64,000 bases of DNA. Source: Microbacterium luteolum. Lineage in GTDB: Bacteria > Actinomycetota > Actinomycetes > Actinomycetales > Microbacteriaceae. The notes beneath the pieces are model-generated. The model worked only from the letters and a program-made list of their open reading frames with translations, made no database searches and was not told the DNA's origin. Position numbers and translations under genes: made by a program. Location: contig NZ_BAAAUN010000001.1 of the NCBI RefSeq assembly GCF_039533965.1, forward strand, positions 3,632,950 to 3,696,949. Direction: 5' to 3'. Positions 42,212-53,658 of this stretch are shown one piece after another; within the stretch, counting starts at the first letter, position 1, and the number at the start of each line of letters is the position of its first letter.

Positions 42212-42374
42212 GAAGGGCCCCGCTGGCGCGGAGACCCTTCATGCGTTTGGCGGTGACGGCGGGACTCCGGTGCTCGCTGCGCTCGCTCCTCCCCGAATCC
42301 CCAGTGCTCGATAAACGCATGAAGGGCCCCCGCTGGCGCGGAGACCCTTCATGCGTTTGGCGGTGACGGCGGGA
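42212..42374. repeat. direct repeat duplicating the tRNA-Ser 3' end and terminator
   Basis: A 53-bp block at 42212-42264 recurs at 42321-42374 with a single inserted C. Each copy contains the minus-strand terminator segment (GAAGGGCCCC...GACCCTTC), ATGCGTTTGG and the last 14 nt of the tRNA-Ser gene (CGGTGACGGCGGGA). The 56 nt between the copies carry no gene. The arrangement looks like an att-type remnant or a local tandem duplication at a tRNA 3' end. Confidence 0.85.
42313..42358 (-). terminator. terminator of tRNA-Ser
   Basis: Perfect 14-bp stem AAACGCATGAAGGG / CCCTTCATGCGTTT (42313-42326 with 42345-42358) directly downstream of the tRNA-Ser 3' end on the minus strand. The upstream GNAT gene is convergent, so it may serve both directions. 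A partial copy is in the duplicated block. Confidence 0.75.
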
Positions 42375-42445
42375 TTCGAACCCGCGGTTGCTTGCACAAC
42401 ACACGCTTTCCAAGCGTGCTCCTTCGGCCGCTCGGACACGTCACC
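42361..42445 (-). tRNA. tRNA-Ser (GGA anticodon)
   Basis: 85-nt class II tRNA on the minus strand. Acceptor GGTGACG (42445-42439) pairs with CGTCACC (42368-42362), discriminator G at 42361. Anticodon loop CTTGGAAAG gives GGA, reading UCC/UCU. The long variable arm (TTGTGCAAGCAA) and T-arm GGTTCGAATCC are intact. A -10-like TAAGAT (complement of 42461-42466) precedes it. Its 3' end is duplicated 110 bp downstream. Confidence 0.97.
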
Positions 42446-42853: not shown

Positions 42854-42909
42854 GGAGGACACTGTAGCGTTAACCGTGCAAGAACATGCAACAACAGGAA
42901 GAAGTGCGG

Positions 42910-43629
42910 ATGCTGAGTGTGCAGCGCAAAGAACATCTCCTCGGACTCCTCGCCGCTGAGGGGCGCATCGTCGCGAAGGCGGTCGCCGCGGATCTCGGCG
43001 TCTCCGAGGACTCCATCCGCCGCGACCTGCGGGAGCTCGCCGACGCGGGGCTGTGCATCCGCGTCTACGGCGGTGCGCTGCCCGTGCCGGCGGCCGACGC
43101 GCCCGTGGTGCAGCGTCTGGGGGTGGCGAGCGAGAGCAAGGAGCGGGTCGCCCGTGCGGCGGTCGCGCTGATCCGCCCGTCGTCGACGATCATCCTCGAT
43201 GCAGGCACCACGACCCTGGCGATGGCCCGGAGGCTTCCGCATGATGCCGGACTGACGGTGATCACCCCGAGCCCCGCGGTGGCGCTGACGGCGATGGAGC
43301 ATTCGGCCGCGCGCGTGCTGATGGTGGGCGGCGAGCTCAGCCGGCATTCGGCCGTGGCGGGAGGCGCTCTCGCTCAGGAGGCGATCTCCCGGCTCTCGGC
43401 CGACGTGTTCTTCCTCGGTGTGACAGGGATCGACCCCGTGCACGGTCTCACCACCGGAGAACTGGATGACGCGGTGACGAAGCGCGCCCTCGCCGCGCGC
43501 AGCGCCGAGGTGCTCGTGCTCGGCAGTGCGGAGAAGATCGGGGCGGTCTCGCGGTTCCCCGTGCTCGGGATCGACGAGGTCTCGGGTGTGATCGTCGATC
43601 CTCAAGGGCCCGAACTCCGCATCGGCTGA
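42910..43629 (+). CDS. DeoR/GlpR-family transcriptional regulator
   Basis: 239 residues from the ATG at 42910, which has AGGAAGAAGTGCGG upstream; an in-frame ATG at 42886 would add eight residues. The DeoR helix-turn-helix is RKEHLLGLLAAEGRIVAKAVAADLGVSEDSIRRDL, and the sugar-phosphate sensing domain includes ILDAGTTTLAMA and DVFFLGVTGIDPVHGLTT. It senses a phosphorylated sugar or nucleotide sugar. The adjacent DUF4406 gene is divergent, hinting at regulation of nucleoside metabolism. It also borders the RiPP cluster, but belongs by codon use to the core chromosome. Confidence 0.87.
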   Translation: MLSVQRKEHLLGLLAAEGRIVAKAVAADLGVSEDSIRRDLRELADAGLCIRVYGGALPVPAADAPVVQRLGVASESKERVARAAVALIRPSSTIILDAGTTTLAMARRLPHDAGLTVITPSPAVALTAMEHSAARVLMVGGELSRHSAVAGGALAQEAISRLSADVFFLGVTGIDPVHGLTTGELDDAVTKRALAARSAEVLVLGSAEKIGAVSRFPVLGIDEVSGVIVDPQGPELRIG

Positions 43630-43679
43630 GGGTTCCCCGGCGCTCACCTCTCCTCCACAGCGGGGGTACAGCTGAAATA

Positions 43680-43731
43680 TTGCACTCGATGGAGTAATCC
43701 TTATATCCTCATATGAGGACGTAAAGTCCTC
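43680..43731 (+). promoter_or_regulatory. promoter and palindromic operator of the RiPP cluster
   Basis: TTGCAC (43680-43685) and TATATC (43702-43707) are spaced 16 bp and head the cluster in an AT-rich patch. The perfect palindrome TCCTCATATGAGGA (43706-43719) overlaps the -10 and start point, and GAGGAC-GTAAA-GTCCTC (43715-43731) overlaps it in turn, giving three half-sites. A repressor probably binds here. The region 43630-44022 is otherwise a ~300-nt leader with one small open frame. Confidence 0.6.
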
Positions 43732-43801
43732 GCATGGGGATGCGGAAGAGTCGACCGGATGACGCCTTCGTTGCCTCCTCGGCGCATCTTCTGGGGGACG
43801 A

Positions 43802-44023
43802 ATGGACATGGGATCAGCGTGGTCGGCGGGGCGTCGTCAACGTACCGCGACAGCTGGCGCGCCGGACCTGACCGGCCGACGGCCGGTGGTCGACTTCGTC
43901 ACAGCGCCGATACCACCGCAGGATACTCCGGTCGACTCCTTCCCGACGGCGGGCGTGACGCTGATGGCAGGGGACGGTGCACTCAGACGGCTTGGCCGGA
44001 ACACACCGCGAGGAGGCGTCTGA
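43802..44023 (+). CDS. possible small protein in the RiPP cluster leader
   Basis: An open frame of 73 codons starting at ATG 43802 with GGGGGACGA upstream and ending in TGA that overlaps the next ATG by one base (TGATG at 44021-44025). It encodes a Pro/Gly/Arg-rich product without membrane segment and without the precursor features (no ELE-type leader motif, no C-terminal Thr). Third-position G/C is lower than in core genes but similar to the cluster genes. It may be real or only a coupling frame that delivers ribosomes to the recognition-protein gene. No homologue recognised. Confidence 0.35.
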   Translation: MDMGSAWSAGRRQRTATAGAPDLTGRRPVVDFVTAPIPPQDTPVDSFPTAGVTLMAGDGALRRLGRNTPRGGV

Positions 44024-45072
44024 TGCGAACTGACGAAACGGTGGCTGACCTGGAAGTCGTCGGAGCACGGGCGCTTCGCGAATGGATCACCGGACGTCGT
44101 GAGGAGTACTCGCGGGTCTTCCTCGTGGAGAGCGGAGCTGCCGCCGCGGACATCGACGACGTGGCCGGCCGCGATGATGTGGTCCTTCTGCCGACGGCCG
44201 GCGAACCGTACAACGGACGTGCCCGCGCAGTTCGCTACAGCGGAGCGTTGGACGAGATCGGTGACGAGCTGTTCTTCGGAGAGCGTTCGGTCGAGCTTCA
44301 GGACTACGTCGCCGCGGCGTTCGTCCAGATTCTCGGACCGACGGCAGTGTGCCTCATCGACCCGCCCGGCTGGCACGCCTTCCTGGCTGATGCGGACATC
44401 GCTCGGGAGACCGGGGTCTTTCCATCGGCGTTGATCGATCCTCGGGTGATTCTCGGGGATCGAACTGCCCTTGCGAAGCCCGGCGAGCGGGCGACTCCGA
44501 GCGCCCTCAGAGTGCGCTCGGACGGCAGAGTCAGCGTCGGTCTCAGGGGCGAGGTCATCGGCAGCGTCGACGATCTTCGTACCCTGCTCGCCGTTCCTCT
44601 GCCTCGCGTCGCGGCGCTGGGAGGCATCGCGCCGCGCGATGAGCTCACGGCCGACCTGACCAGCCGCGGCTGGATCGGGCGCTACCTCAACGCGACGGAT
44701 CTCATCAAGATGCTCCAGCTCGGGAATGGCGGCGCCAAGATGGCGGGCTTCGGCTGGGAGCTCGTCGAGGACGGACGCGCAGACGCCGAACCGCTGATGT
44801 CGGATCCGTTCCTGCTGGAGACCACCGACGGCTTTCTCCTCGCCGACACCGGAACCCTGCGCCGTCAGCTGCTGTCGCCGGTCACGGCCACGGTGGTCGC
44901 CATCCTTCAGACCTCGAGCGCGCCTGAGGTCGCGGCAGAGCGCATCACGCGACTGCTGGGTACGACAGCCTCTGACGCGAGCAGGCTGTGCCTCGATGCT
45001 GTCGGCGCGCTCGACGTCCATTTCGGCAGGCGAGCCGACTCGTCGAATCCGACATCGGGAACACGCAGGTGA
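44023..45072 (+). CDS. daptide-type RiPP recognition protein (RRE-containing)
   Basis: 349 residues from ATG 44023 with AGGAGGCGTCTG. The C-terminal ~80 residues (FLLETTDGFLLADTGTLRRQ, LLSPVTATVVAILQTSS, then AERITRLLG) fit the PqqD-like winged helix used as RiPP recognition element, which binds precursor leaders. The N-terminal part has no recognised catalytic motif. In daptide clusters an RRE protein is known to work with the oxidative decarboxylase on the precursor's C-terminal Thr; this gene is in the right place for that. Its TGA overlaps the next GTG by four bases, so the two are coupled. Annotation rests mainly on context. Confidence 0.72.
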   Translation: MRTDETVADLEVVGARALREWITGRREEYSRVFLVESGAAAADIDDVAGRDDVVLLPTAGEPYNGRARAVRYSGALDEIGDELFFGERSVELQDYVAAAFVQILGPTAVCLIDPPGWHAFLADADIARETGVFPSALIDPRVILGDRTALAKPGERATPSALRVRSDGRVSVGLRGEVIGSVDDLRTLLAVPLPRVAALGGIAPRDELTADLTSRGWIGRYLNATDLIKMLQLGNGGAKMAGFGWELVEDGRADAEPLMSDPFLLETTDGFLLADTGTLRRQLLSPVTATVVAILQTSSAPEVAAERITRLLGTTASDASRLCLDAVGALDVHFGRRADSSNPTSGTRR

Positions 45073-46328
45073 GCGCCCTGCACGCGCTCTGGGCCTCGAT
45101 GCTCCCGGCCGACACCACCTTCACGCAAGATCGAGTAGCTGTCGGCGCCGCTGGGCATCGGATCGACTTCGCCGACGGCTCCTCGCGCCTCTGCGCGACG
45201 AGCGGACTGTGGAACGTTCCGCTCGGCTTCGGCAACCCGGCGGTCGCCGATGCCGTGAGCAGGGCCACCCACGACGCGTCCTACCTGACTCTGTTCCGCG
45301 CGTCGCATCGGTACGCGGAGGCCGCCGCTGAGGCTCTCGTGGAGCTCGCGAACCCGATGAGGTACAGCCGCGTCATCTTCTCCACGTCGGGCGGGGCGGC
45401 GAATGACGCCGCGATGAAGCTGGCACGCCAGTACTGGGCGCAGAAAGCGGCCGGATCCCGCTCGCTCGTCGTGGGTCTGAAGGGCAGCTATCACGGCACG
45501 ATGTACGGCAGCCATGCGCTGAGCGGAGACGATCTCCTTCAATCCGCCTACGCCGTCGACCGCAGATCGGTGAGACATGTCTCTCACTCCGATGACGGAG
45601 AGGAACTCGAGACGCTGCTGAAGCGTGAGGGGGCCAGGGTCGCGTCTGTCGTCGTCGAGCCGGTCCTGGGCAGCGGAGCGCACGCGCTGTCCGATGCGTT
45701 CGTGGATCGTCTGCTGGCTCTGCGAGAGGAGTACGGGTTCCTGATCGTCGCGGATGAGGTCGCCACGGGCTTCGGTCGCACAGGCACGATGCTCGCCACC
45801 GATGGTTGGGCCGCCGCACCCGACGTTCTCCTTCTCTCGAAGGCGTTGACGAACGGTGCCATGGGCGCCGCGGTGCTCGTGGTGGGTTCTCGCGTCGCAT
45901 CCGAGTTCGCGCGCGGCGGGTGGACCTTCGTCCACGGTGAGACGCAGGCGGGAACGCCGGCGTGCGCCGCGGCCATCATCGCGGTGATCGAAGAGCTGCG
46001 CCGGATCGACGTGCAGTCGACCGCGAGGGCGCTCGCGACGGGCCTGTGGGAGATGGCGACGTCGTTGAAGTCGGAGGGTCTGGTCGCTGAGGTGACGGGC
46101 CGGGGTTGCTTCGTGGGACTCGGGCTTCGCAACCCCGATGACAGCCTCCTCTCGGCGAATGAGGTCCTTCGAGTCGTCTCCGCCATCGCGGACAACGGCG
46201 TTCTGGTACAGCCCGGGCCCAGTTCCGTCGAGCTGATCCCGGCGTACGGATTCACGGCGGCTGAGCTCCTCCAGACGGACACGGCTGTGCGCGCGGGGTT
46301 GGCGCACGCAGCGGAGTCGGCAGCATGA
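45069..46328 (+). CDS. daptide-type class III aminotransferase
   Basis: 419 residues from GTG 45069 (GTGA overlap with the previous stop); the ATG at 45096 is an alternative. This is a PLP class III (omega) aminotransferase: FSTSGGAANDAAMKLARQY near 105, GSYHGTMYGSHALSG, the PLP-binding Asp in LIVADEVATGFGRTG and Schiff-base Lys258 in LLLSKALTNG. In daptide biosynthesis the aminotransferase converts the C-terminal ketone, left after oxidative decarboxylation of Thr, into an amine. It overlaps the dehydrogenase gene by four bases. Individually it could be any omega-aminotransferase; the cluster defines its role. Confidence 0.85.
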   Translation: MSALHALWASMLPADTTFTQDRVAVGAAGHRIDFADGSSRLCATSGLWNVPLGFGNPAVADAVSRATHDASYLTLFRASHRYAEAAAEALVELANPMRYSRVIFSTSGGAANDAAMKLARQYWAQKAAGSRSLVVGLKGSYHGTMYGSHALSGDDLLQSAYAVDRRSVRHVSHSDDGEELETLLKREGARVASVVVEPVLGSGAHALSDAFVDRLLALREEYGFLIVADEVATGFGRTGTMLATDGWAAAPDVLLLSKALTNGAMGAAVLVVGSRVASEFARGGWTFVHGETQAGTPACAAAIIAVIEELRRIDVQSTARALATGLWEMATSLKSEGLVAEVTGRGCFVGLGLRNPDDSLLSANEVLRVVSAIADNGVLVQPGPSSVELIPAYGFTAAELLQTDTAVRAGLAHAAESAA

Positions 46329-47509
46329 CCCCCGAGTTCACGGGGCGGGTTCCGACGCTCTGGCACGGGCGAGGGGTCGCGCGTCAGTTGACGAAGCGCC
46401 TGACCGCCGGGCGTGAGACTCTCGTGATCGCAGATTCCGCGCTCACGGTCCCCGTCCTGATCGCCGGCTCGGCGAGGACAGTGAGGCTGGACGCGCGCTC
46501 GATCGACGTCACCACTGTCGTCACGATCGCGCAGGAGATCGTACGCCGGCCGCCGAGCGTCATCGTGGCGATCGGCGGGGGCAGCATCCTCGACGCCACC
46601 AAGATCGCCGCCCTCGCGCTCGCCGGGGGGCGCGTCTTCGACTACGCGGTCGGACACGCGTCGAGGTTCGCGCTGACCCTGCTGCCCGATGCACCACCAC
46701 CCGTCGAGGTCGTCGCCGTGCCGACGACGATCGGCACGTCGTCGGAGACGAACAGCGTCGGCATCCTCCGGAACGAGAGCGGCTACCGGCTCATCGTCGG
46801 GCGCCTCCTGCGACCGCGCCACGCCATCATCGATCCGGACAACCTGAGCACTCTCACGCGTACCGCAGTGAGAGAGGGGGCGATCGAGGCATTCCTCCGC
46901 CTGGCCGGAGTGTCGACGAGCGAGCGGCGCAGCACCAGGGCGAAGAGTGATGCCGTCCTTCTCGCCCGGGCGCTTCTCGAGACGGCCATGTACGACGAGG
47001 GCTCCGCTGCGGGACGGTTGCGTCTCGCCCGATTGAGCGCGGCCACGCAGCGCAGCGCCGCACTCCGTGGCGACGACCCGTACGGCGCTCGTCACTGGTA
47101 CCTGGCGAACGAGGTCGCTTTCGCGCTCGGGGTCCGCAAGATGGTCGCCACGGCGGCGGTCATCGCCGCGGTCTGGCGTCGAATCTGCGCGGGCGACTCG
47201 CGATGGGGAGATCGGGAGAGTCTCGAGGACTTCTGGGAGAGGGGGACGAGCGGGTCGGGACTGCCCCTCGAACCGGTCGCCGGAATCGCGTCCCTCGTCG
47301 ACCAGTGGGAGATCCCGCTTCCGCAGACTCCGACCGCGGACGTCCTCAGCCGCATCGCCTCCGACACAGAGAAGTCGTGGGGGTCTCGCCAGCCGATGCT
47401 TCGCGATCTCGCGTCAGACGACTTCCGCGATGTGCTCCGCGATTCCCGCTGGAGTGCTCAGCCGGTCGGCAACGCATGCCGACCTTCGGAACCGCTTGGA
47501 AGGAGGTGA
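46325..47509 (+). CDS. daptide-type oxidative decarboxylase, iron-alcohol-dehydrogenase fold
   Basis: 394 residues. The Rossmann-like NAD site GGGSILDATK (84-93) and VPTTIGTSSETNS near 137 identify the iron-containing alcohol dehydrogenase family. The usual metal-ligand motifs (xDAxxHAxEAY and HG) read here as TAVREGAIEAF and RK, so canonical Asp/His ligands seem absent. In daptides an enzyme of this kind oxidatively decarboxylates the precursor's terminal Thr. It starts in the aminotransferase stop (ATGA). The ribosome site of the first precursor (GGAGGT) lies within its final codons, five bases before the precursor ATG. Confidence 0.8.
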   Translation: MTPEFTGRVPTLWHGRGVARQLTKRLTAGRETLVIADSALTVPVLIAGSARTVRLDARSIDVTTVVTIAQEIVRRPPSVIVAIGGGSILDATKIAALALAGGRVFDYAVGHASRFALTLLPDAPPPVEVVAVPTTIGTSSETNSVGILRNESGYRLIVGRLLRPRHAIIDPDNLSTLTRTAVREGAIEAFLRLAGVSTSERRSTRAKSDAVLLARALLETAMYDEGSAAGRLRLARLSAATQRSAALRGDDPYGARHWYLANEVAFALGVRKMVATAAVIAAVWRRICAGDSRWGDRESLEDFWERGTSGSGLPLEPVAGIASLVDQWEIPLPQTPTADVLSRIASDTEKSWGSRQPMLRDLASDDFRDVLRDSRWSAQPVGNACRPSEPLGRR

Positions 47510-47514
47510 ATTGA

Positions 47515-47649
47515 ATGAACAGCAACGTTGAAATGCAGATCCATTTCCAGGAGCTGGACGAGATGGAGGCCCCGAGCTGGGAGAGCTTCTACAGAGGCAC
47601 GATAAGTGCGCTGGTTCTCATCGGCGCCGCCGCGGCCATGGCGACATGA
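47515..47649 (+). CDS. mpaA: daptide-type precursor peptide 1
   Basis: 44 residues, MNSNVEMQIH FQELDEMEAP SWESFYRGTI SALVLIGAAA AMAT. The leader carries IHFQELDEMEAP, shared with the two following peptides. The rest is a hydrophobic helix ending in Thr, the residue that daptide enzymes convert to a dimethylated diamine. ATG at 47515 has AGGAGGTGAATTGA upstream; a second ATG at 47533 would give a leader aligned with the other two. Too short and too context-dependent for ordinary gene finders. Where the leader is cut cannot be read from the sequence. Confidence 0.82.
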   Translation: MNSNVEMQIHFQELDEMEAPSWESFYRGTISALVLIGAAAAMAT

Positions 47650-47689
47650 TCGCGGCGATCGAAGGAATCGAACGAGGAAAGGAGTGAGC

Positions 47690-47815
47690 ATGCAAACTGC
47701 AGCACCGAAGCTCGAGTTCACGGAGCTCGAGGCCATGGAGGCGCTGAATGACACCGATGACTTCATGCGCGGCTTCGCCGTTGGCGTCATCATCGGGATT
47801 CTCGCTCTGACGTAG
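47690..47815 (+). CDS. mpaA: daptide-type precursor peptide 2
   Basis: 41 residues, MQTAAPKLEF TELEAMEALN DTDDFMRGFA VGVIIGILAL T. It has the leader motif LEFTELEAMEAL, then an amphipathic, Gly/Val/Ile-rich helix ending in Thr. Ribosome site GAGGAAAGGAGTGAGC. The core differs strongly from precursors 1 and 3 while the leader is conserved, the usual pattern for RiPP precursors sharing one enzyme set. Confidence 0.82.
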   Translation: MQTAAPKLEFTELEAMEALNDTDDFMRGFAVGVIIGILALT

Positions 47816-47851
47816 GAAGAGCATTCGCAAGGTTGACCCAGGAGGTAGGAA

Positions 47852-47971
47852 TTGCAGACAGAGACGCTGGACTTCATCGAACTCGAACAGATTGACGCAC
47901 CTCTCGAATGGTGGGAGCACGCGAGCTATATCGTCCTCATCATCGGCGGTGCCGCAGCGATCGCGACCTGA
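47852..47971 (+). CDS. mpaA: daptide-type precursor peptide 3 (TTG start)
   Basis: 39 residues, (M)QTETLDFIE LEQIDAPLEW WEHASYIVLI IGGAAAIAT. The only start with a ribosome site (CCAGGAGGTAGGAA) is TTG at 47852. The leader motif LDFIELEQIDAP aligns with precursors 1 and 2, and the product again ends in Thr; its C-terminal GGAAAIAT resembles GAAAAMAT of precursor 1. Recognised by alignment with its neighbours, since ATG/GTG searches miss it. Confidence 0.8.
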   Translation: MQTETLDFIELEQIDAPLEWWEHASYIVLIIGGAAAIAT

Positions 47972-47973
47972 AC

Positions 47974-48009
47974 ATCGGGTGCGGGCGCAACACCGCGCCC
48001 GCACCCGAT
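47974..48009 (+). terminator. attenuator hairpin after the precursor genes
   Basis: Perfect 15-bp stem ATCGGGTGCGGGCGC / GCGCCCGCACCCGAT (47974-47988 with 47995-48009), loop AACACC, followed by TCTTCCC. It begins three bases after the third precursor stop and ends 26 nt before the methyltransferase. Partial termination or 3' protection would raise precursor mRNA relative to downstream genes. Confidence 0.75.
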
Positions 48010-48035
48010 TCTTCCCATCGAAAAGTGAGGTGTGC

Positions 48036-48863
48036 ATGTCACGACTGATCACCGATGCCATGGCGGCGCGACTCGACATTGCCGGTGCGGTCCCGAAGGA
48101 GCAGGACCTGTACGCGGGTACCGGCACCGACTTCTACGAACGGCTGGTCGGGCCTGACCGAGCAGAGATTCGAGAAGTGCTGGCGCTTGCGAGAGATTCC
48201 GCGGATCCGATTCTCGATATCGCGGCGGGTACAGGGAGATTGACCATCCCGCTCGTGAGATCCGGACGACGGGTGACCGCGATCGATCTCTCCGACGACA
48301 TGCTCCGCCACCTTCGACGCGCATTGCCCGACCACCCGATGCTGGATTGCGCTGTTGCGGATATGCGCGACTTCGCGTTGGCGGGTCGATATGGGCTCGT
48401 CATCATCGGTGCGACGTCGATCACCCTGCTCGATCGCACAGGGAGATCGCGTCTCTACGCGAACGTGCGACGCCACCTCGCGGCCGACGGCGTCTTCGCC
48501 TTCACCGTCGCGGCAGGCATCTCTGCGGAGACCCTCTCGGAGTCCAGAGATCAGGAGATCCGGGTGCCCGGGCCCGACGGAGACGAGATCTACCTCTTCT
48601 CTCAGCAGATCGAAGACGAGGGCGCGGTGCGCGTCGTCAACTGGGTGCGGGCCTCCGACGTGACGGAAGGTGGCGAAGTCACCGTCCTCACCAGTCGACT
48701 ACGAGTGCTCGATCACGCGATCCTCTCGCGAGAGCTCGTCGAAGCCGGCTTCGACGCACCTGCCGTCTCTCCGGTGCGAACGCACCACGGAGCGGACATC
48801 CTCCTTCTCGCCACGTCGTGGGCGGGACCGCCGGAAGTGGTGGATGACGATGCCGCTCACTAG
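48036..48863 (+). CDS. mpaM: daptide-type SAM-dependent N-methyltransferase
   Basis: 275 residues from ATG 48036 with GTGAGGTGTGC. Class I methyltransferase fold: motif I PILDIAAGTGRLTIPL at ~58-72, motif II acidic loop VTAIDLSDDML, then CAVADMRDFAL. In the daptide pathway the methyltransferase dimethylates the new C-terminal amine. The first 45 residues (IAGAVPKEQDLYAGTGTDFYE) are typical of small-molecule methyltransferases. Its stop lies 20 nt inside the protease gene. Alone it would be a generic methyltransferase; placement directly after the Thr-ended precursors supports the role. Confidence 0.85.
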   Translation: MSRLITDAMAARLDIAGAVPKEQDLYAGTGTDFYERLVGPDRAEIREVLALARDSADPILDIAAGTGRLTIPLVRSGRRVTAIDLSDDMLRHLRRALPDHPMLDCAVADMRDFALAGRYGLVIIGATSITLLDRTGRSRLYANVRRHLAADGVFAFTVAAGISAETLSESRDQEIRVPGPDGDEIYLFSQQIEDEGAVRVVNWVRASDVTEGGEVTVLTSRLRVLDHAILSRELVEAGFDAPAVSPVRTHHGADILLLATSWAGPPEVVDDDAAH

Positions 48864-50523
48864 GTTCACTCACCGACGGAACTCACCGGAAGCGGCCCCG
48901 CTCGCTGCCGACGCTCGGCCGCGGCTCGCTTCCGGCGTCGTGTTCGAGGGAGCGCCTGATGAAGCGGTGCGGATCACGATGTTGCATGGAGTGCCGACGT
49001 CGAGGGTCTCCCGGACGGTCGCCGAACTGCTGAAAGCGATGAACGGCGAAACGGCGCTCCACGATCTGCACCAGCGCTTCGCCGCATCCGAGTCGCTGGA
49101 GAGCTTCCTCCAGTTGGTCCAACGCTTCCGCGCCAACGGGCTCCTCGACGGGGACACGAAGCTCCCGCCGGGCCGAATCACCTACCGCCCCCCGTTCACC
49201 CTGCAGCTCGCGACGCTTCGTGCGCCGGGCATCTTCGACCGCCTCGACCGATCGATGGTGCCGATCTCCTGCCGGACGGCTCTGATATCAGGTGCCGTGC
49301 TGTTCTGCCTGGGGCTGGTTGCCGCGGTCCTGCAGGCGAGCGAGCTGCTGGAAGTTCTGTCCACGCCGGTACCGTTGCTCGGTCTGGTGAGTCTCCTCGC
49401 GGCACTCTCGATCCTGACATTGCTCCACGAGAGCGCCCACGGACTCACGCTCACGAGGTTCGGCGGCAGCCCACGCCGCGCGGGTTTCATGCTGTTCTAC
49501 CTCACACCCGCGTTCTTCGTGGATGTCACTGACGGGTGGCGCCTCCCCGATCGTCGGCAACGTGTCGCGGTCGCGCTCGCGGGGCCTGCCGTGCATGCCG
49601 TCGTCGCCGCGATCGCGCTCGGCGCCGCGCTCATTCTTCCTCAGCCGGGGTTCAGGCAGACGCTCCTGCTCCTCGCGGTCGCGTGCGGGGGCATCGTCCT
49701 GGTCAACCTGATTCCGTTCGTGCGATTCGACGGGTACATCGCGCTCATGAGCGCGCTGGACGAGCCGAACCTCAGAGATCGATCGATTCGGGACGGCGCG
49801 AACTTTCTGACTCGGCTGCTGTTCGGCGGACAGCGGACGAGCAGAAGCCTGGAGAGGTGGTGGAGCGTGCCGTTCGGTCTGGCGAGCCTCATGGCTCCGG
49901 TCTTCCTGGTGCTGTTCGCGGTCTCTCGCGCAGTTCGGGCGCTCGCCGGAGGAGGACCCGTCCTCGGCCTGCTCGTGGTGGCGCTGGAAGCGGTCGTGGT
50001 CCTCGTCGGCATCGGGATCGTCTTCCGGGCACTGCACCGCGTCCTGAGATCGGGGGTCTCACGGCTCCGCTTCGTCTCGGTCAATGCCGCTCTCGTCGCG
50101 AGCATCGTGATCGCCGGAGCCCTCATCCCCGTTCCGATGACGGCCACGTACGGCTTCACCGCACACGGTGACCGCGTGGTCCTCGTGCACGCGGGCGACA
50201 GGGCCGAGGTGGAGGTGCCCGCCGGGTCCCGTGTGGAGCTCATGAGCAGCGGTCTTCTCGTCAACGAGCAGATCGGCGCAGGAACGGCCCTCCCCCGGCG
50301 ACCCCAACCGACCGAGGTCCCGCTCGACGCTCTGGTTCCCGTGAGGGCGCACGATGTGTCCGTCCCCGCGGTGATCGTCGCCGGGGTGGACGTGTCCGAG
50401 GGGAGCGGGAGCGTGCCTTCGACGGGACAGGCGCGCGTCGAGCTCGGCGTGGGAAACCTGTGGCAGACGCTCTGGGTGACGGGCGTGATATGGCCGCTGT
50501 CGGCCCTTCAGATCGAGAAGTAG
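48844..50523 (+). CDS. M50-family intramembrane metalloprotease with N-terminal PqqD-like domain
   Basis: 559 residues from ATG 48844 (48850 possible). Residues ~25-115 read as a PqqD/RRE-like winged helix (VSRTVAELLKAMNG, then LHDLHQRFAAS). A multi-span region follows with zinc motif HESAH (195-199) and the distal ligand in NLIPFVRFDGY near 295, as in site-2 proteases. The C-terminal ~120 residues after the last membrane segment form an exterior beta-rich domain (VVLVHAGDRAEVEVPAGSRVEL). It probably removes leaders during export, as the intramembrane protease known from daptide clusters. The fused RRE-like domain could dock the leader. Confidence 0.82.
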   Translation: MTMPLTRFTHRRNSPEAAPLAADARPRLASGVVFEGAPDEAVRITMLHGVPTSRVSRTVAELLKAMNGETALHDLHQRFAASESLESFLQLVQRFRANGLLDGDTKLPPGRITYRPPFTLQLATLRAPGIFDRLDRSMVPISCRTALISGAVLFCLGLVAAVLQASELLEVLSTPVPLLGLVSLLAALSILTLLHESAHGLTLTRFGGSPRRAGFMLFYLTPAFFVDVTDGWRLPDRRQRVAVALAGPAVHAVVAAIALGAALILPQPGFRQTLLLLAVACGGIVLVNLIPFVRFDGYIALMSALDEPNLRDRSIRDGANFLTRLLFGGQRTSRSLERWWSVPFGLASLMAPVFLVLFAVSRAVRALAGGGPVLGLLVVALEAVVVLVGIGIVFRALHRVLRSGVSRLRFVSVNAALVASIVIAGALIPVPMTATYGFTAHGDRVVLVHAGDRAEVEVPAGSRVELMSSGLLVNEQIGAGTALPRRPQPTEVPLDALVPVRAHDVSVPAVIVAGVDVSEGSGSVPSTGQARVELGVGNLWQTLWVTGVIWPLSALQIEK

Positions 50524-50535
50524 GAAAGAGCGAAG

Positions 50536-51252
50536 ATGAACGACAACGCAATCGAAGTCCGAGGACTCACGAAGAGGTACGGCCAGCGGGTCGCAGTGGA
50601 GGAGCTGTCGTTCGTCGTACCGCGCGGGTCGATCGTCGGCCTGCTGGGGCCGAACGGCGCCGGCAAGTCGACCACGCTGCGGACGATCGTCGGCCTGCTC
50701 AAGCCGACGATCGGCGACAGTCTGATCGACGGCGCGCCCTTCGCCGCACTCGAGAACCCCGCAGCGCACGTCGGTGTCCACATGGACGGGTTCGGTTTCG
50801 AAGCAGGCATCACGGCGCGCCGGCATCTGGAGATCACCCGGCTCGCGGCGGGCGTTCCTCGGAGCCGAGTCGATGCGGTGCTGGAGGAGGTGGGACTGGC
50901 CGCGGATGCCCGTCGTCGCGTGAAGACGTTCTCGACGGGGATGGCGCAGCGCCTCGGTCTGGCCGCCGCTCTCATCGGTTCGCCTCGAACACTCGTCCTG
51001 GACGAGCCGGCGAACGGGCTGGACCCCGACGGCATCCGCTGGCTGCGCAGATTCCTGCGCGGCTATGCCGAGCGCGGCGGCACCGTGCTGATCTCCAGCC
51101 ATCAGCTCGCCGAGCTGGAACAGGTCGTGGATGAGGTCGTCGTCATCAAGCGGCGTGCGCTCTTCGCCGGGCGACTGGAAGATCTCGTCACGAACGAATC
51201 CGACTCGCTGGAGAGCAAGTACTTCGATCTCGTCGAAGGAGTGTCGGCATGA
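50536..51252 (+). CDS. ABC transporter ATP-binding protein (peptide export/immunity)
   Basis: 238 residues. Walker A GPNGAGKST (~38-46), signature FSTGMAQRLGLA, Walker B TLVLDEPANGLDPDG, H-loop ISSHQLAE. This is the DRA/CcmA-type class used by ABC-2 exporters and lantibiotic immunity systems. It starts 12 nt after the protease stop and overlaps the next permease by four bases, so it powers the following two membrane proteins. Likely role: export of the mature peptides and producer self-protection. Confidence 0.88.
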   Translation: MNDNAIEVRGLTKRYGQRVAVEELSFVVPRGSIVGLLGPNGAGKSTTLRTIVGLLKPTIGDSLIDGAPFAALENPAAHVGVHMDGFGFEAGITARRHLEITRLAAGVPRSRVDAVLEEVGLAADARRRVKTFSTGMAQRLGLAAALIGSPRTLVLDEPANGLDPDGIRWLRRFLRGYAERGGTVLISSHQLAELEQVVDEVVVIKRRALFAGRLEDLVTNESDSLESKYFDLVEGVSA

Positions 51253-51977
51253 GAGGTGTGATCCAGAGCGAGGTCCTGCGCTCCCTGAGCGGGCTCTCCA
51301 TCCTGGCCGTCTATTTCGTCGCGCTCCTCATCCCGGCGTTCGTTCTCTTCTCCGACGGTTCGCGCTTGGCTCTCGCCGGGCTCGACTCCGGCGCGGCCAC
51401 CGTTCGACTTCTGGAGCCGCTCGCCTGGTCCGGGATCTCCGCGGCGTTCGTGGGTGCGTACGGGGTCACACGTGAGTACTACTACGGCTCGATCGAAAGG
51501 ACGCTCACCGGAGTCGGCTTCGGTCGCGCCTTCTCGGGAAAGCTGGTGGCGGGTGCCGCCATCGCCATCGTGTTGTCCGTGGGCATCTTCGTGATCTGGA
51601 CAGCAGGCGTCTCGCTCATCCTGGCCCAGAACGGGTTGGGGCTCGCTCTCACACAGGATGCGTGGCGCGTGTATACGGGTGGTCTGGCCGGTGCGATTCT
51701 CGGCGCACTCATCGGAGGAGCTGTCGGCTGGATCACCCGGAACTACTACGTCACCGCCGCCATCGTCCTGGTCTTCCCGATGGCGGTGGAGTTCGCATTG
51801 CTGCGCACAGCACCCGAGGTGGCGAGGTTCTCGCCGGGGATGGCCATCGCCGCCTTGAGTGTCCCGGGATATCAGGACCGCCTGCTCGAGTTCCTCCCGG
51901 CCCTCAGCGTCGGCGTTGCGTGGGCCGCCGCGCTGGTCGCGATCGCGTGGGTCCGTGGCCGCAGGAGGGTGGGGTGA
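51249..51977 (+). CDS. ABC-2-type transporter permease 1
   Basis: 242 residues with six hydrophobic segments and no other motif. The N-terminus MRGVIQSEVLRSLSGLSILAV, the membrane layout and the segment TREYYYGSIERTLTGVGFGRAFSGKLV resemble ABC-2 permeases of the bacteriocin-immunity type. The ATG lies in the ATPase stop (ATGA), and its own stop overlaps the next gene by four bases (GTGA). Confidence 0.82.
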   Translation: MRGVIQSEVLRSLSGLSILAVYFVALLIPAFVLFSDGSRLALAGLDSGAATVRLLEPLAWSGISAAFVGAYGVTREYYYGSIERTLTGVGFGRAFSGKLVAGAAIAIVLSVGIFVIWTAGVSLILAQNGLGLALTQDAWRVYTGGLAGAILGALIGGAVGWITRNYYVTAAIVLVFPMAVEFALLRTAPEVARFSPGMAIAALSVPGYQDRLLEFLPALSVGVAWAAALVAIAWVRGRRRVG

Positions 51978-52708
51978 TCGGCCAGGCTCTTCGAGCGCAC
52001 GTGCGCACGTTCGCGGGCGACATCGTTCTGCTCTGGGTGGTGGTGGCGGCGTTCGCGGTCTCTCTCTCCTTGGCGACCAGCATCCCGCCGGAACTCGCCG
52101 AGGCGCCGGCCAACGTCCGGACAGCGCTCGCCGCGCCATTCACCGCCGTGCTCGCGACGTACGGCGCAGTCCTCGCGTCCGTCTACGGTTCTTTCCGCTA
52201 CACCCTCGATCGGCGCGACGGTGTGGTGGCCCAGCGTCTGATGCTGCAGCCCCGGTGGGTGACTCTCCTCGTCAGGGCGCCCGCTTCCGCCGTCGGTGGG
52301 GCGGTCGTGGCGCTTGCGGCGCTCGTCGGCGGTCACGCGGTGCTGACCTTCGCGATCGGCGGCATAGCGCTGGACTGGACAGCGGTCGGATCCACGCTCG
52401 CGCTCGGCGCCATCGCAGGGCTCTGGGGGATGGGGCTCGGAATCGTCGTCCAGGTCCATCTCGTCGCGCTCTTCGCTGCATCGATGTCGATGGGTGCTGC
52501 ACTTCTGGTCGCGATCCTCTGGAAGGTCGGGGCCGTCTATCTGCCCCTTCTCGCGATGCTCGAGGCCCTTCGGTTCGACGTCACTGCAGTGGGGATCTTG
52601 CCGGGAGAGAGTCTCGATGGCTCCACGGCCGTCCTGGTGACGGCCGGGTGGGTGACGGCGGCCCTCCTGGCAGGGGGACTCTCGTTCATGAACCGTGACG
52701 TGAGATAA
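51974..52708 (+). CDS. ABC-2-type transporter permease 2
   Basis: 244 residues from GTG 51974 with GCAGGAGGGTG upstream. Six hydrophobic segments (e.g. IVLLWVVVAAFAVSLSLA, TAVLATYGAVLASVYGSF) and a cytoplasmic loop RYTLDRRDGVVAQRLMLQ after the second one, parallel to the loop in permease 1. The two permeases probably pair as a heterodimer with the upstream ATPase. Last gene of the cluster; codon use returns to core type in the next gene. Confidence 0.82.
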   Translation: MIGQALRAHVRTFAGDIVLLWVVVAAFAVSLSLATSIPPELAEAPANVRTALAAPFTAVLATYGAVLASVYGSFRYTLDRRDGVVAQRLMLQPRWVTLLVRAPASAVGGAVVALAALVGGHAVLTFAIGGIALDWTAVGSTLALGAIAGLWGMGLGIVVQVHLVALFAASMSMGAALLVAILWKVGAVYLPLLAMLEALRFDVTAVGILPGESLDGSTAVLVTAGWVTAALLAGGLSFMNRDVR

Positions 52709-52767: not shown

Positions 52768-53658
52768 GTGGCAACCCCGAAGATCGTCCTGTTCTACGCT
52801 TTCACGCCGCTCGCCGACCCCGAGGCCATCCGCCTCTGGCAGCGCGACCTCGGCGAGGCGCTCGGCCTACGCGGGCGGGTGCTCATCTCGAAGGACGGCG
52901 TGAACGGCACCCTAGGGGGCGACGTCCGGGCGCTGAAGAAGTGGTCGCGCTCCTTCCGCTCCTACGCGCCGTTCGCGGACGCCGACATCAAGTGGAGCGA
53001 GGGGACGGGCCTGGATGCCGAGGGTCGAAGCCTCGACTTCCCGAAGCTCAGCGTCAAGGTGCGCGATGAGATCGTGTCCTTCGGCGCCCCGGGTGAGCTG
53101 AAGGTCGACGAGCACGGCGTGGTCGGCGGTGGGACGCGACTCACTCCCGAGGCGCTTCATGAGCTGATCGACGAGCGCGGCGACGATGTGGTCTTCTTCG
53201 ACGGACGCAACGCCCTCGAGGCGCAGATCGGAAGGTTCCGCGGCGCGGTCGTGCCCGACACCGAGACCACGAGGGATTTCGTGCAGCTGCTCGACTCGGG
53301 AGCGTACGACGACCTGAAGGGCAAGCCTGTGGTCACGTACTGCACGGGGGGCATCCGCTGCGAAGTGCTCTCCAGCCTCATGACCGCGCGTGGCTTCGGC
53401 GAGGTCTATCAGCTCGAAGGCGGGATCGTCCGGTACGGAGAGCAGTACGGCGACGACGGCCTGTGGGAGGGATCCCTCTATGTGTTCGACAAGCGCGGCT
53501 CCGTCGACTTCTCCGACCATGCCCAGGTGGTCGGCGAGTGCGTCGGCTGCGGCGCCGCGACCAAGCGCACGGCCAACTGCCCCGACCTCTCCTGTCGCGC
53601 CCAGTTCGTCGTCTGCGCCGACTGCGAGTCCGTGCCCTGCGCCGCGCACGCGGCCTGA
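52768..53658 (+). CDS. trhO: tRNA uridine(34) hydroxylase TrhO (rhodanese-related)
   Basis: 296 residues. An N-terminal acylphosphatase-like domain ([26 protein letters not shown]) is followed by a rhodanese domain with Cys192 in [11 protein letters not shown]. The C-terminal tail is Cys-rich ([19 protein letters not shown], then CADCESVPC), probably zinc-binding. TrhO hydroxylates U34 of certain tRNAs to 5-hydroxyuridine. The family is widely annotated as rhodanese-related sulfurtransferase. GTG start at 52768. Convergent with the transglutaminase gene, 7 nt apart. Confidence 0.9.

What the first reader, a model, noticed from the sequence alone, without database searches (positions are those of the whole stretch)
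43680..52708. Complete daptide-type RiPP gene cluster
Seen directly: RRE-like protein, class III aminotransferase, iron-ADH-fold enzyme, three tiny peptides each ending in Thr, SAM methyltransferase, M50 protease and an ABC exporter, mostly overlapping by 1-20 nt. Established knowledge: daptides, a RiPP class described from Microbacterium paraoxydans, use an oxidative decarboxylase with an RRE partner, an aminotransferase and a methyltransferase to turn a C-terminal Thr into a dimethylated propanediamine. Inference: this cluster makes three such peptides with two positively charged termini, likely membrane-active.
Basis: partly seen in the sequence, partly recalled or inferred. Interest (0 to 1): 0.95.

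Follow-up and report, generated by a model that had tools for sequence, protein, structure and literature searches.

The report
A three-peptide daptide cluster in Microbacterium
This stretch of a likely Microbacterium chromosome holds a complete set of daptide genes, predicted to make three small peptides whose tail would be swapped for a positively charged group; the class is already known, but every close relative examined carries exactly one copy of each of the same three peptide types, which suggests that they act together.

Summary
All eight biosynthetic genes (B, D, C, M, P, three precursors) pass the curated NCBIfam cut-offs for named daptide families, the precursors each in its own model: MpaA1, MpaA2, MpaA3. 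It is not the published mpa cluster: predicted masses differ (2469.3, 2321.3, 2367.3 here; 2363, 2232, 2339 published), while relative L104 reproduces the published masses.

Refinements: the unit likely starts at a conserved promoter/operator at 43677; there are three transporter genes, the ATPase closest to (but below cut-off for) a lantibiotic-protection family; DapP models as RRE, site-2 protease and a further beta domain; only A1 would be net cationic; A2 has Leu, not Pro, at the presumed cleavage position.

Added here: 58 of 58 loci with DapB at least 38% identical (about 41 distinct) hold exactly one A1-, A2- and A3-type precursor; 0 of 13 others do. The operator occurs once per genome in 13 of 247 genomes, 12 with DapP over cut-off. 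Relatives lack all or most of the cluster at the same address.

Verdict: real, correctly identified, a new member of a known kind. Chemistry and activity are predicted, not shown.

The parts
43677..43731 (+). Conserved promoter/operator-like element: ATATTGCA (43677-43684), perfect palindrome TCCTCATATGAGGA (43706-43719), overlapping inverted repeat GAGGAC-GTAAA-GTCCTC (43715-43731)
   Evidence: upstream of related daptide operons, one perfect copy in the own genome; role inferred
44023..45072 (+). dapB, RRE accessory protein of the oxidative decarboxylase
   Evidence: NF041823, 271.5 bits, cut-off 150
44782..45015 (+). RRE domain of DapB (residues 254-331)
45069..46328 (+). dapD, class-III aminotransferase
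   Evidence: NF041821, 560.7 bits, cut-off 450; K258 invariant in 42 of 42 rows; tree
46325..47509 (+). dapC, PF00465-fold oxidative decarboxylase
   Evidence: NF041822, 330.9 bits, cut-off 300; metal-ligand positions altered
47515..47649 (+). dapA1 precursor; predicted core SWESFYRGTISALVLIGAAAAMAT
   Evidence: NF041805, 95.0 bits, cut-off 40
47690..47815 (+). dapA2 precursor; predicted core NDTDDFMRGFAVGVIIGILALT, Leu at position -1
   Evidence: NF041806, 97.3 bits, cut-off 40
47852..47971 (+). dapA3 precursor (TTG start); predicted core LEWWEHASYIVLIIGGAAAIAT
   Evidence: NF041807, 81.1 bits, cut-off 40
48036..48863 (+). dapM, SAM methyltransferase
   Evidence: NF041820, 258.5 bits, cut-off 175
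48850..50523 (+). dapP, intramembrane site-2 leader protease
   Evidence: NF041824, 398.2 bits, cut-off 300; H193, E194, H197 and D294 invariant in 40 of 40 rows
48913..49152 (+). RRE domain of DapP (residues 22-101)
49225..49950 (+). Site-2 protease membrane core of DapP (about residues 126-367)
50131..50451 (+). C-terminal beta domain of DapP (residues 428-534), outside the part matched by NF041824 (24-396)
50536..51252 (+). dapT1, ABC ATPase
   Evidence: Best of 197 NCBIfam families TIGR03740, 191.8 bits, cut-off 309.75 not reached; PF00005
51249..51977 (+). dapT2, membrane protein, presumed permease
   Evidence: No NCBIfam family, no Pfam family over cut-off; 5 hydrophobic segments
51974..52708 (+). 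dapT3, membrane protein, presumed permease
   Evidence: No NCBIfam family, no Pfam family over cut-off; 6 hydrophobic segments

Best explanation
This is a complete daptide-class RiPP gene cluster of the Microbacterium (mpa) type, predicted to turn the C-terminal Thr of three precursor peptides into a dimethylated propanediamine and to release three peptides that likely act together on membranes. Predicted steps: the RRE of DapB would bind the leader and hand the C-terminus to DapC, which would oxidise and decarboxylate Thr to a ketone; DapD would aminate it; DapM would dimethylate the amine; DapP, with its own RRE and a site-2 protease core, would cut off the leader; and DapT1-T3 would move the hydrophobic products out of the producer's own membrane, which may serve export and self-protection at once. 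Shown here: gene set, order, family membership, conserved catalytic-motif residues in D and P, altered metal ligands in C, and 1:1:1 conservation of the three precursor types. Inferred: the chemistry (from the published M. paraoxydans and T. fusca work), the cleavage sites, joint action and the transporter role.
For: 8 of 8 biosynthetic genes pass NCBIfam daptide cut-offs. L104 gives three cores whose Dmp masses (2363.3, 2232.3, 2339.3) match the published mpa products 2363, 2232, 2339, and the window's cores are 71%, 82% and 91% identical to them. DapD: 17 Dap rows against 4 same-genome paralogues, 100/100. DapC: R192 in 43 of 43 rows and E188 in 42 of 43 at positions where the PDB alignment puts His and Asp, as reported for TfDapC in general terms. 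DapP and DapB models contain RRE-like folds. Exactly one A1, A2 and A3 type in 58 of 58 loci with DapB at least 38% identical, none in 13 of 13 others; within-type core identity 0.74-0.80 against 0.21-0.33 between types (on a typed subset). Some combinations of the published peptides were more hemolytic than single ones (1+3, 2+3, 1+2+3).
Against: No expression or mass data. A2 has Leu at -1 where the publication reports cleavage after a conserved Pro; 16 of 23 mpa-type A2 leaders have Leu, 6 Pro, 1 Gln (my count). DapC passes its cut-off only narrowly (330.9 against 300). In the published assays the three peptides showed no significant growth inhibition of the strains tested, so a role in nature is unproven. 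The 58 loci are one lineage and not independent: 17 occur twice by identical DapB match values, leaving about 41; the patterns were drawn from known members and the 38% line was set after one search had shown the split. Thirteen diverged or partial loci carry none of the three types. T2 and T3 match no family, so the transporter role is weak.
Confidence: 0.9

Rival explanations
1. The cluster makes daptides, but the three products work independently (for example as single surfactants or signals); the fixed trio only reflects common descent of one locus.
For: The loci with the trio are all from one genus; the class as a whole shows little conservation of precursor number, and B2-type clusters, three of them at the same address, carry other precursors.
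Against: The three types stay distinct and single-copy although DapB falls to 39% identity; published synergy of the mpa peptides in hemolysis.
Confidence: 0.35
2. T1-T3 are a self-protection transporter of the LanFEG/BcrA kind and not the exporter; release depends on DapP or another system.
For: T1's best NCBIfam family is lantibiotic protection TIGR03740; one ATPase with two separate membrane proteins of 242 and 244 aa. The LanFEG/BcrA comparison itself is recalled.
Against: T1 is far below that family's cut-off (191.8 against 309.75); the later daptide paper predicts TfDapT1T2 to export. mpaABCDMP without the transporter gave fully modified peptide in a foreign host at lower signal, which fits either role.
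Confidence: 0.45
3. A generic metabolic operon (class-III aminotransferase, alcohol dehydrogenase, methyltransferase) with chance small ORFs.
For: The folds of D, C and M are common, and long open frames arise by chance in such GC-rich DNA.
Against: All three small ORFs score more than twice their precursor-family cut-offs, and their types recur in 58 of 58 loci with a DapB of at least 38% identity.
Confidence: 0.01
4. The pathway stops short of dimethylation, or ends in another group, because a gene is inactive.
For: No product data. YcaO and LanKC genes occur in other daptide clusters, e.g. L158.
Against: None of the eleven genes of 44023-52708 matched a YcaO or LanKC family in the scans made; M, D and P are matched over nearly the whole of their family profiles.
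Confidence: 0.08

Closest known systems
mpa daptide cluster of Microbacterium paraoxydans DSM 15019 (PMC10036551; parts 1-3 of 8 and found passages seen)
   Same: Genes A1-A3, B, C, D, M, P; precursor families MpaA1, A2, A3; C-terminal Thr; leader motif
   Different: Core sequences and predicted masses differ; A2 has Leu at -1. The mpa DNA itself was not seen; L104 was used as stand-in because its masses agree
tfDap and saDap clusters, T. fusca and S. azureus (PMC12338566; parts 1-2 of 7 and found passages seen)
   Same: DapB, C, D, M, P and T genes; DapC without canonical metal ligands (stated for TfDapC)
   Different: Those carry a YcaO gene (tfDap also LanKC- and LanJ-like genes) and five or four precursors; no such tailoring gene was found here
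Microbacterium sp. TPD7012 cluster (L086)
   Same: DapB 94%, DNA 95% identical over 9.1 kb, same two flanking genes
   Different: A1 and A3 cores differ at two residues each; A2 core identical
Streptomyces sp. NBC_01351 plasmid cluster (L158)
   Same: mpaB, M, D, C, P and four daptide precursors, as annotated
   Different: Linear plasmid; LanKC and YcaO genes present; gene order differs

Membership tests
Daptides | DUF-RRE accessory protein (DapB) with C-terminal RRE | tested here: met
   NF041823 271.5 bits over cut-off 150; RRE-like fold at 254-331
Daptides | PF00465-type oxidative decarboxylase (DapC) | tested here: met
   NF041822 330.9 over 300; PF00465 66.3 over 31.3
Daptides | Daptide class-III aminotransferase (DapD) | tested here: met
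   NF041821 560.7 over 450; tree 100/100
Daptides | SAM methyltransferase (DapM) | tested here: met
   NF041820 258.5 over 175
Daptides | RRE fused to a site-2 protease (DapP) | tested here: met
   NF041824 398.2 over 300; RRE and S2P folds in the model; H193, E194, H197, D294 invariant in 40 of 40. PF02163 itself just missed: 26.7 against 27.2
Daptides | Short precursors with an ELExMEAP-like leader motif and C-terminal Thr | tested here: met
   A1 ELDEMEAP, A2 ELEAMEAL, A3 ELEQIDAP, all ending in Thr; family models over cut-off. Deviations: Leu at -1 in A2, Ile at -4 and Asp at -3 in A3
Daptides | Product with (S)-N2,N2-dimethyl-1,2-propanediamine at the C-terminus | not testable with these tools
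   Needs mass spectrometry and structure work; predicted MH+ 2469.33, 2321.27, 2367.32
LanFEG-type lantibiotic protection transporter (T1) | TIGR03740 curated cut-off 309.75 bits | tested here: not met
   191.8 bits; kept only as a resemblance
Metal-dependent Fe-ADH (DapC) | Asp and three His metal ligands | tested here: not met
   Glu188 and Arg192 at two positions by the alignment to 9knp. The other two positions, and which residues are ligands, rest on a recalled motif: His257 (40 of 43 rows) kept, Arg271/Lys272 in place of the last His

The most novel reading that the evidence does not exclude
The Microbacterium daptides are one three-component membrane weapon: A1, A2 and A3 are distinct, non-interchangeable subunits kept at strict 1:1:1 gene dosage under a dedicated operator, assembling into one pore-like complex, with the DapP outer domain handing the freshly cut peptides to the T1-T3 transporter.
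Probability: 0.3. Interest if true: 0.6.

Novelty: new member of a known kind. Interest (0 to 1): 0.35.

Why it matters
It adds a close natural variant of the founding daptide cluster with new cores and masses that can be tested directly. The functional role of daptides is stated as unclear in print. The 1:1:1 conservation of three precursor types across the loci examined turns that into a concrete test (is one of three enough?), and relatives without the cluster at the same address offer natural comparison strains.
Full report
What is there. The interval holds eleven genes in one direction from 44023 to 52708. Against NCBIfam, DapB, D, C, M and P score 271.5, 560.7, 330.9, 258.5 and 398.2 bits over cut-offs of 150, 450, 300, 175 and 300, and A1, A2, A3 score 95.0, 97.3 and 81.1 over cut-offs of 40, each in its own Mpa family. 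Pfam agrees for D (PF00202), C (PF00465), M (PF13649) and T1 (PF00005); it has nothing over cut-off for B, the precursors, T2 or T3, and P falls just short of PF02163 (26.7 against 27.2). So the daptide reading is right for every biosynthetic gene. ORF length alone would not have shown it.

Relation to the founding cluster. The published mpa products have m/z 2363, 2232 and 2339. With cleavage after position -1 and Thr changed to Dmp, the window's cores give 2469.33, 2321.27 and 2367.32. Locus L104 (Microbacterium sp. LCT-H2) gives 2363.3 and 2232.3, and its A3 core, read, is the sequence that gives 2339.3 elsewhere; its A1 composition also fits the residues reported for compound 1. I therefore use L104 as stand-in for mpa; the mpa DNA itself was not seen. 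Window against L104 core identity: 0.71, 0.82, 0.91. The nearest named cluster found is L086 (DapB 94%).

The trio. A pattern scan of 71 loci found exactly one A1-, one A2- and one A3-type precursor in 58 of the 58 loci whose DapB is at least 38% identical to the window's (lowest 39.4%), and none in the other 13 (DapB 34.4% or less, or no DapB found: L048, L049, L051, L056-L063, L116, L117; L049 is cut by a contig end). Seventeen of the 58 have the same DapB match values as another and are probably the same record, so about 41 are distinct; they are one genus and not independent. The 38% line was drawn after (39 loci plus the window: 33 with the trio, window included, 7 without). Mean core identity within types is 0.75, 0.74, 0.80 and between types 0.31, 0.33, 0.21 on the typed subset. 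With published synergy this makes joint action likely but not shown. Counting side chains and two cationic termini, A1 is +2 and A2 and A3 are 0.

Leader cleavage. The publication reports cleavage after a conserved Pro. Of the 23 mpa-type A2 leaders, 16 have Leu, 6 Pro and 1 Gln at -1 (my count); the window has Leu. The A2 cleavage site here is therefore assumed by register.

Control region. Upstream of B lies ATATTGCA and, 21 bases on, TCCTCATATGAGGA with an overlapping inverted repeat; the palindrome has one perfect copy in the genome. A relaxed pattern occurs within 1300 bases upstream of B in 19 of 42 loci and in 0 of 840 block-shuffled controls; 23 of 42 lack it, among them all nine testaceum-type loci (one of these, L110, has only 217 bases upstream). 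Some variants keep the symmetry, e.g. TCTTCATATGAAGA in L066, L068 and L104; others break it, e.g. L087, L092 and L107. A strict pattern occurs in 13 of 247 genus genomes, once each, with no hit for the reversed pattern; 12 of the 13 have DapP over cut-off. Fisher's test on 12 of 34 against 1 of 213 gives p about 8e-11, without correction for kinship. In G082 the element and DapP lie on different contigs. No regulator was identified. In the two daptide papers the word 'promoter' occurs once, in a cloning method; I read neither whole.

Address and loss. The cluster sits between a DeoR-family gene (42886-43629) and a rhodanese-type gene (52768-53658). Of the 30 rhodanese loci inspected (the best 30 of 102 genomes with a match, 119 searched), 10 have T2 or T3 beside it, 4 have DeoR instead, and 16 neither within the 1.5 kb held. 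Of the four, L120 shows, by eye, a relic of the control element; the pattern does not match it. Among the 16, L119/L167 (G138) has DeoR, the element and a DapB of near full length (residues 1-337, 68%), then directly the rhodanese gene, so D to T3 are missing there. I read this as deletion in relatives; the direction was not tested on a tree. DapP was found in 40 of 247 genus genomes, 34 over cut-off.

Transporter. T1's best NCBIfam family is TIGR03740, lantibiotic protection, at 191.8 bits against a cut-off of 309.75. T2 and T3 show 5 and 6 hydrophobic segments and no family. I take T1-T3 as removing the peptides from the producer membrane, export and protection together; this is inference.

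Verdict. Ordinary in kind, sound in detail: a new member of a known class, with a testable three-part hypothesis as the added value.

Noticed in passing
43677-43731: Operator-like element found once per genome in 13 of 247 genus genomes, 12 of them with DapP over cut-off; regulator unknown
   Followed up: partly
L119/L167 (G138), L120 (G088), L128, L131, L137: Same chromosomal address without the full cluster: DapB alone left, only a relic of the control element (by eye), or DeoR directly beside the rhodanese gene
   Followed up: partly
L046, L047, L067, L071, L073, L075, L077, L081, L082: A second, diverged DapB (33-37% identity to the window's) directly upstream of the usual one, in 9 of 39 loci; that type is the only DapB in L048, L051, L056, L057. 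Role unknown
   Followed up: partly
[not shown]
   Followed up: partly
L079: Here the DeoR gene lies between the cluster and the rhodanese gene, unlike the window
   Followed up: no
L058, L059: Diverged daptide-like loci with different gene order and DapP below cut-off
   Followed up: no
42215-42377: Two 53-nt direct repeats (96% identical, 110 apart), the second running into the 3' end of a tRNA-Ser gene at 42358-42445 (- strand)
   Followed up: no
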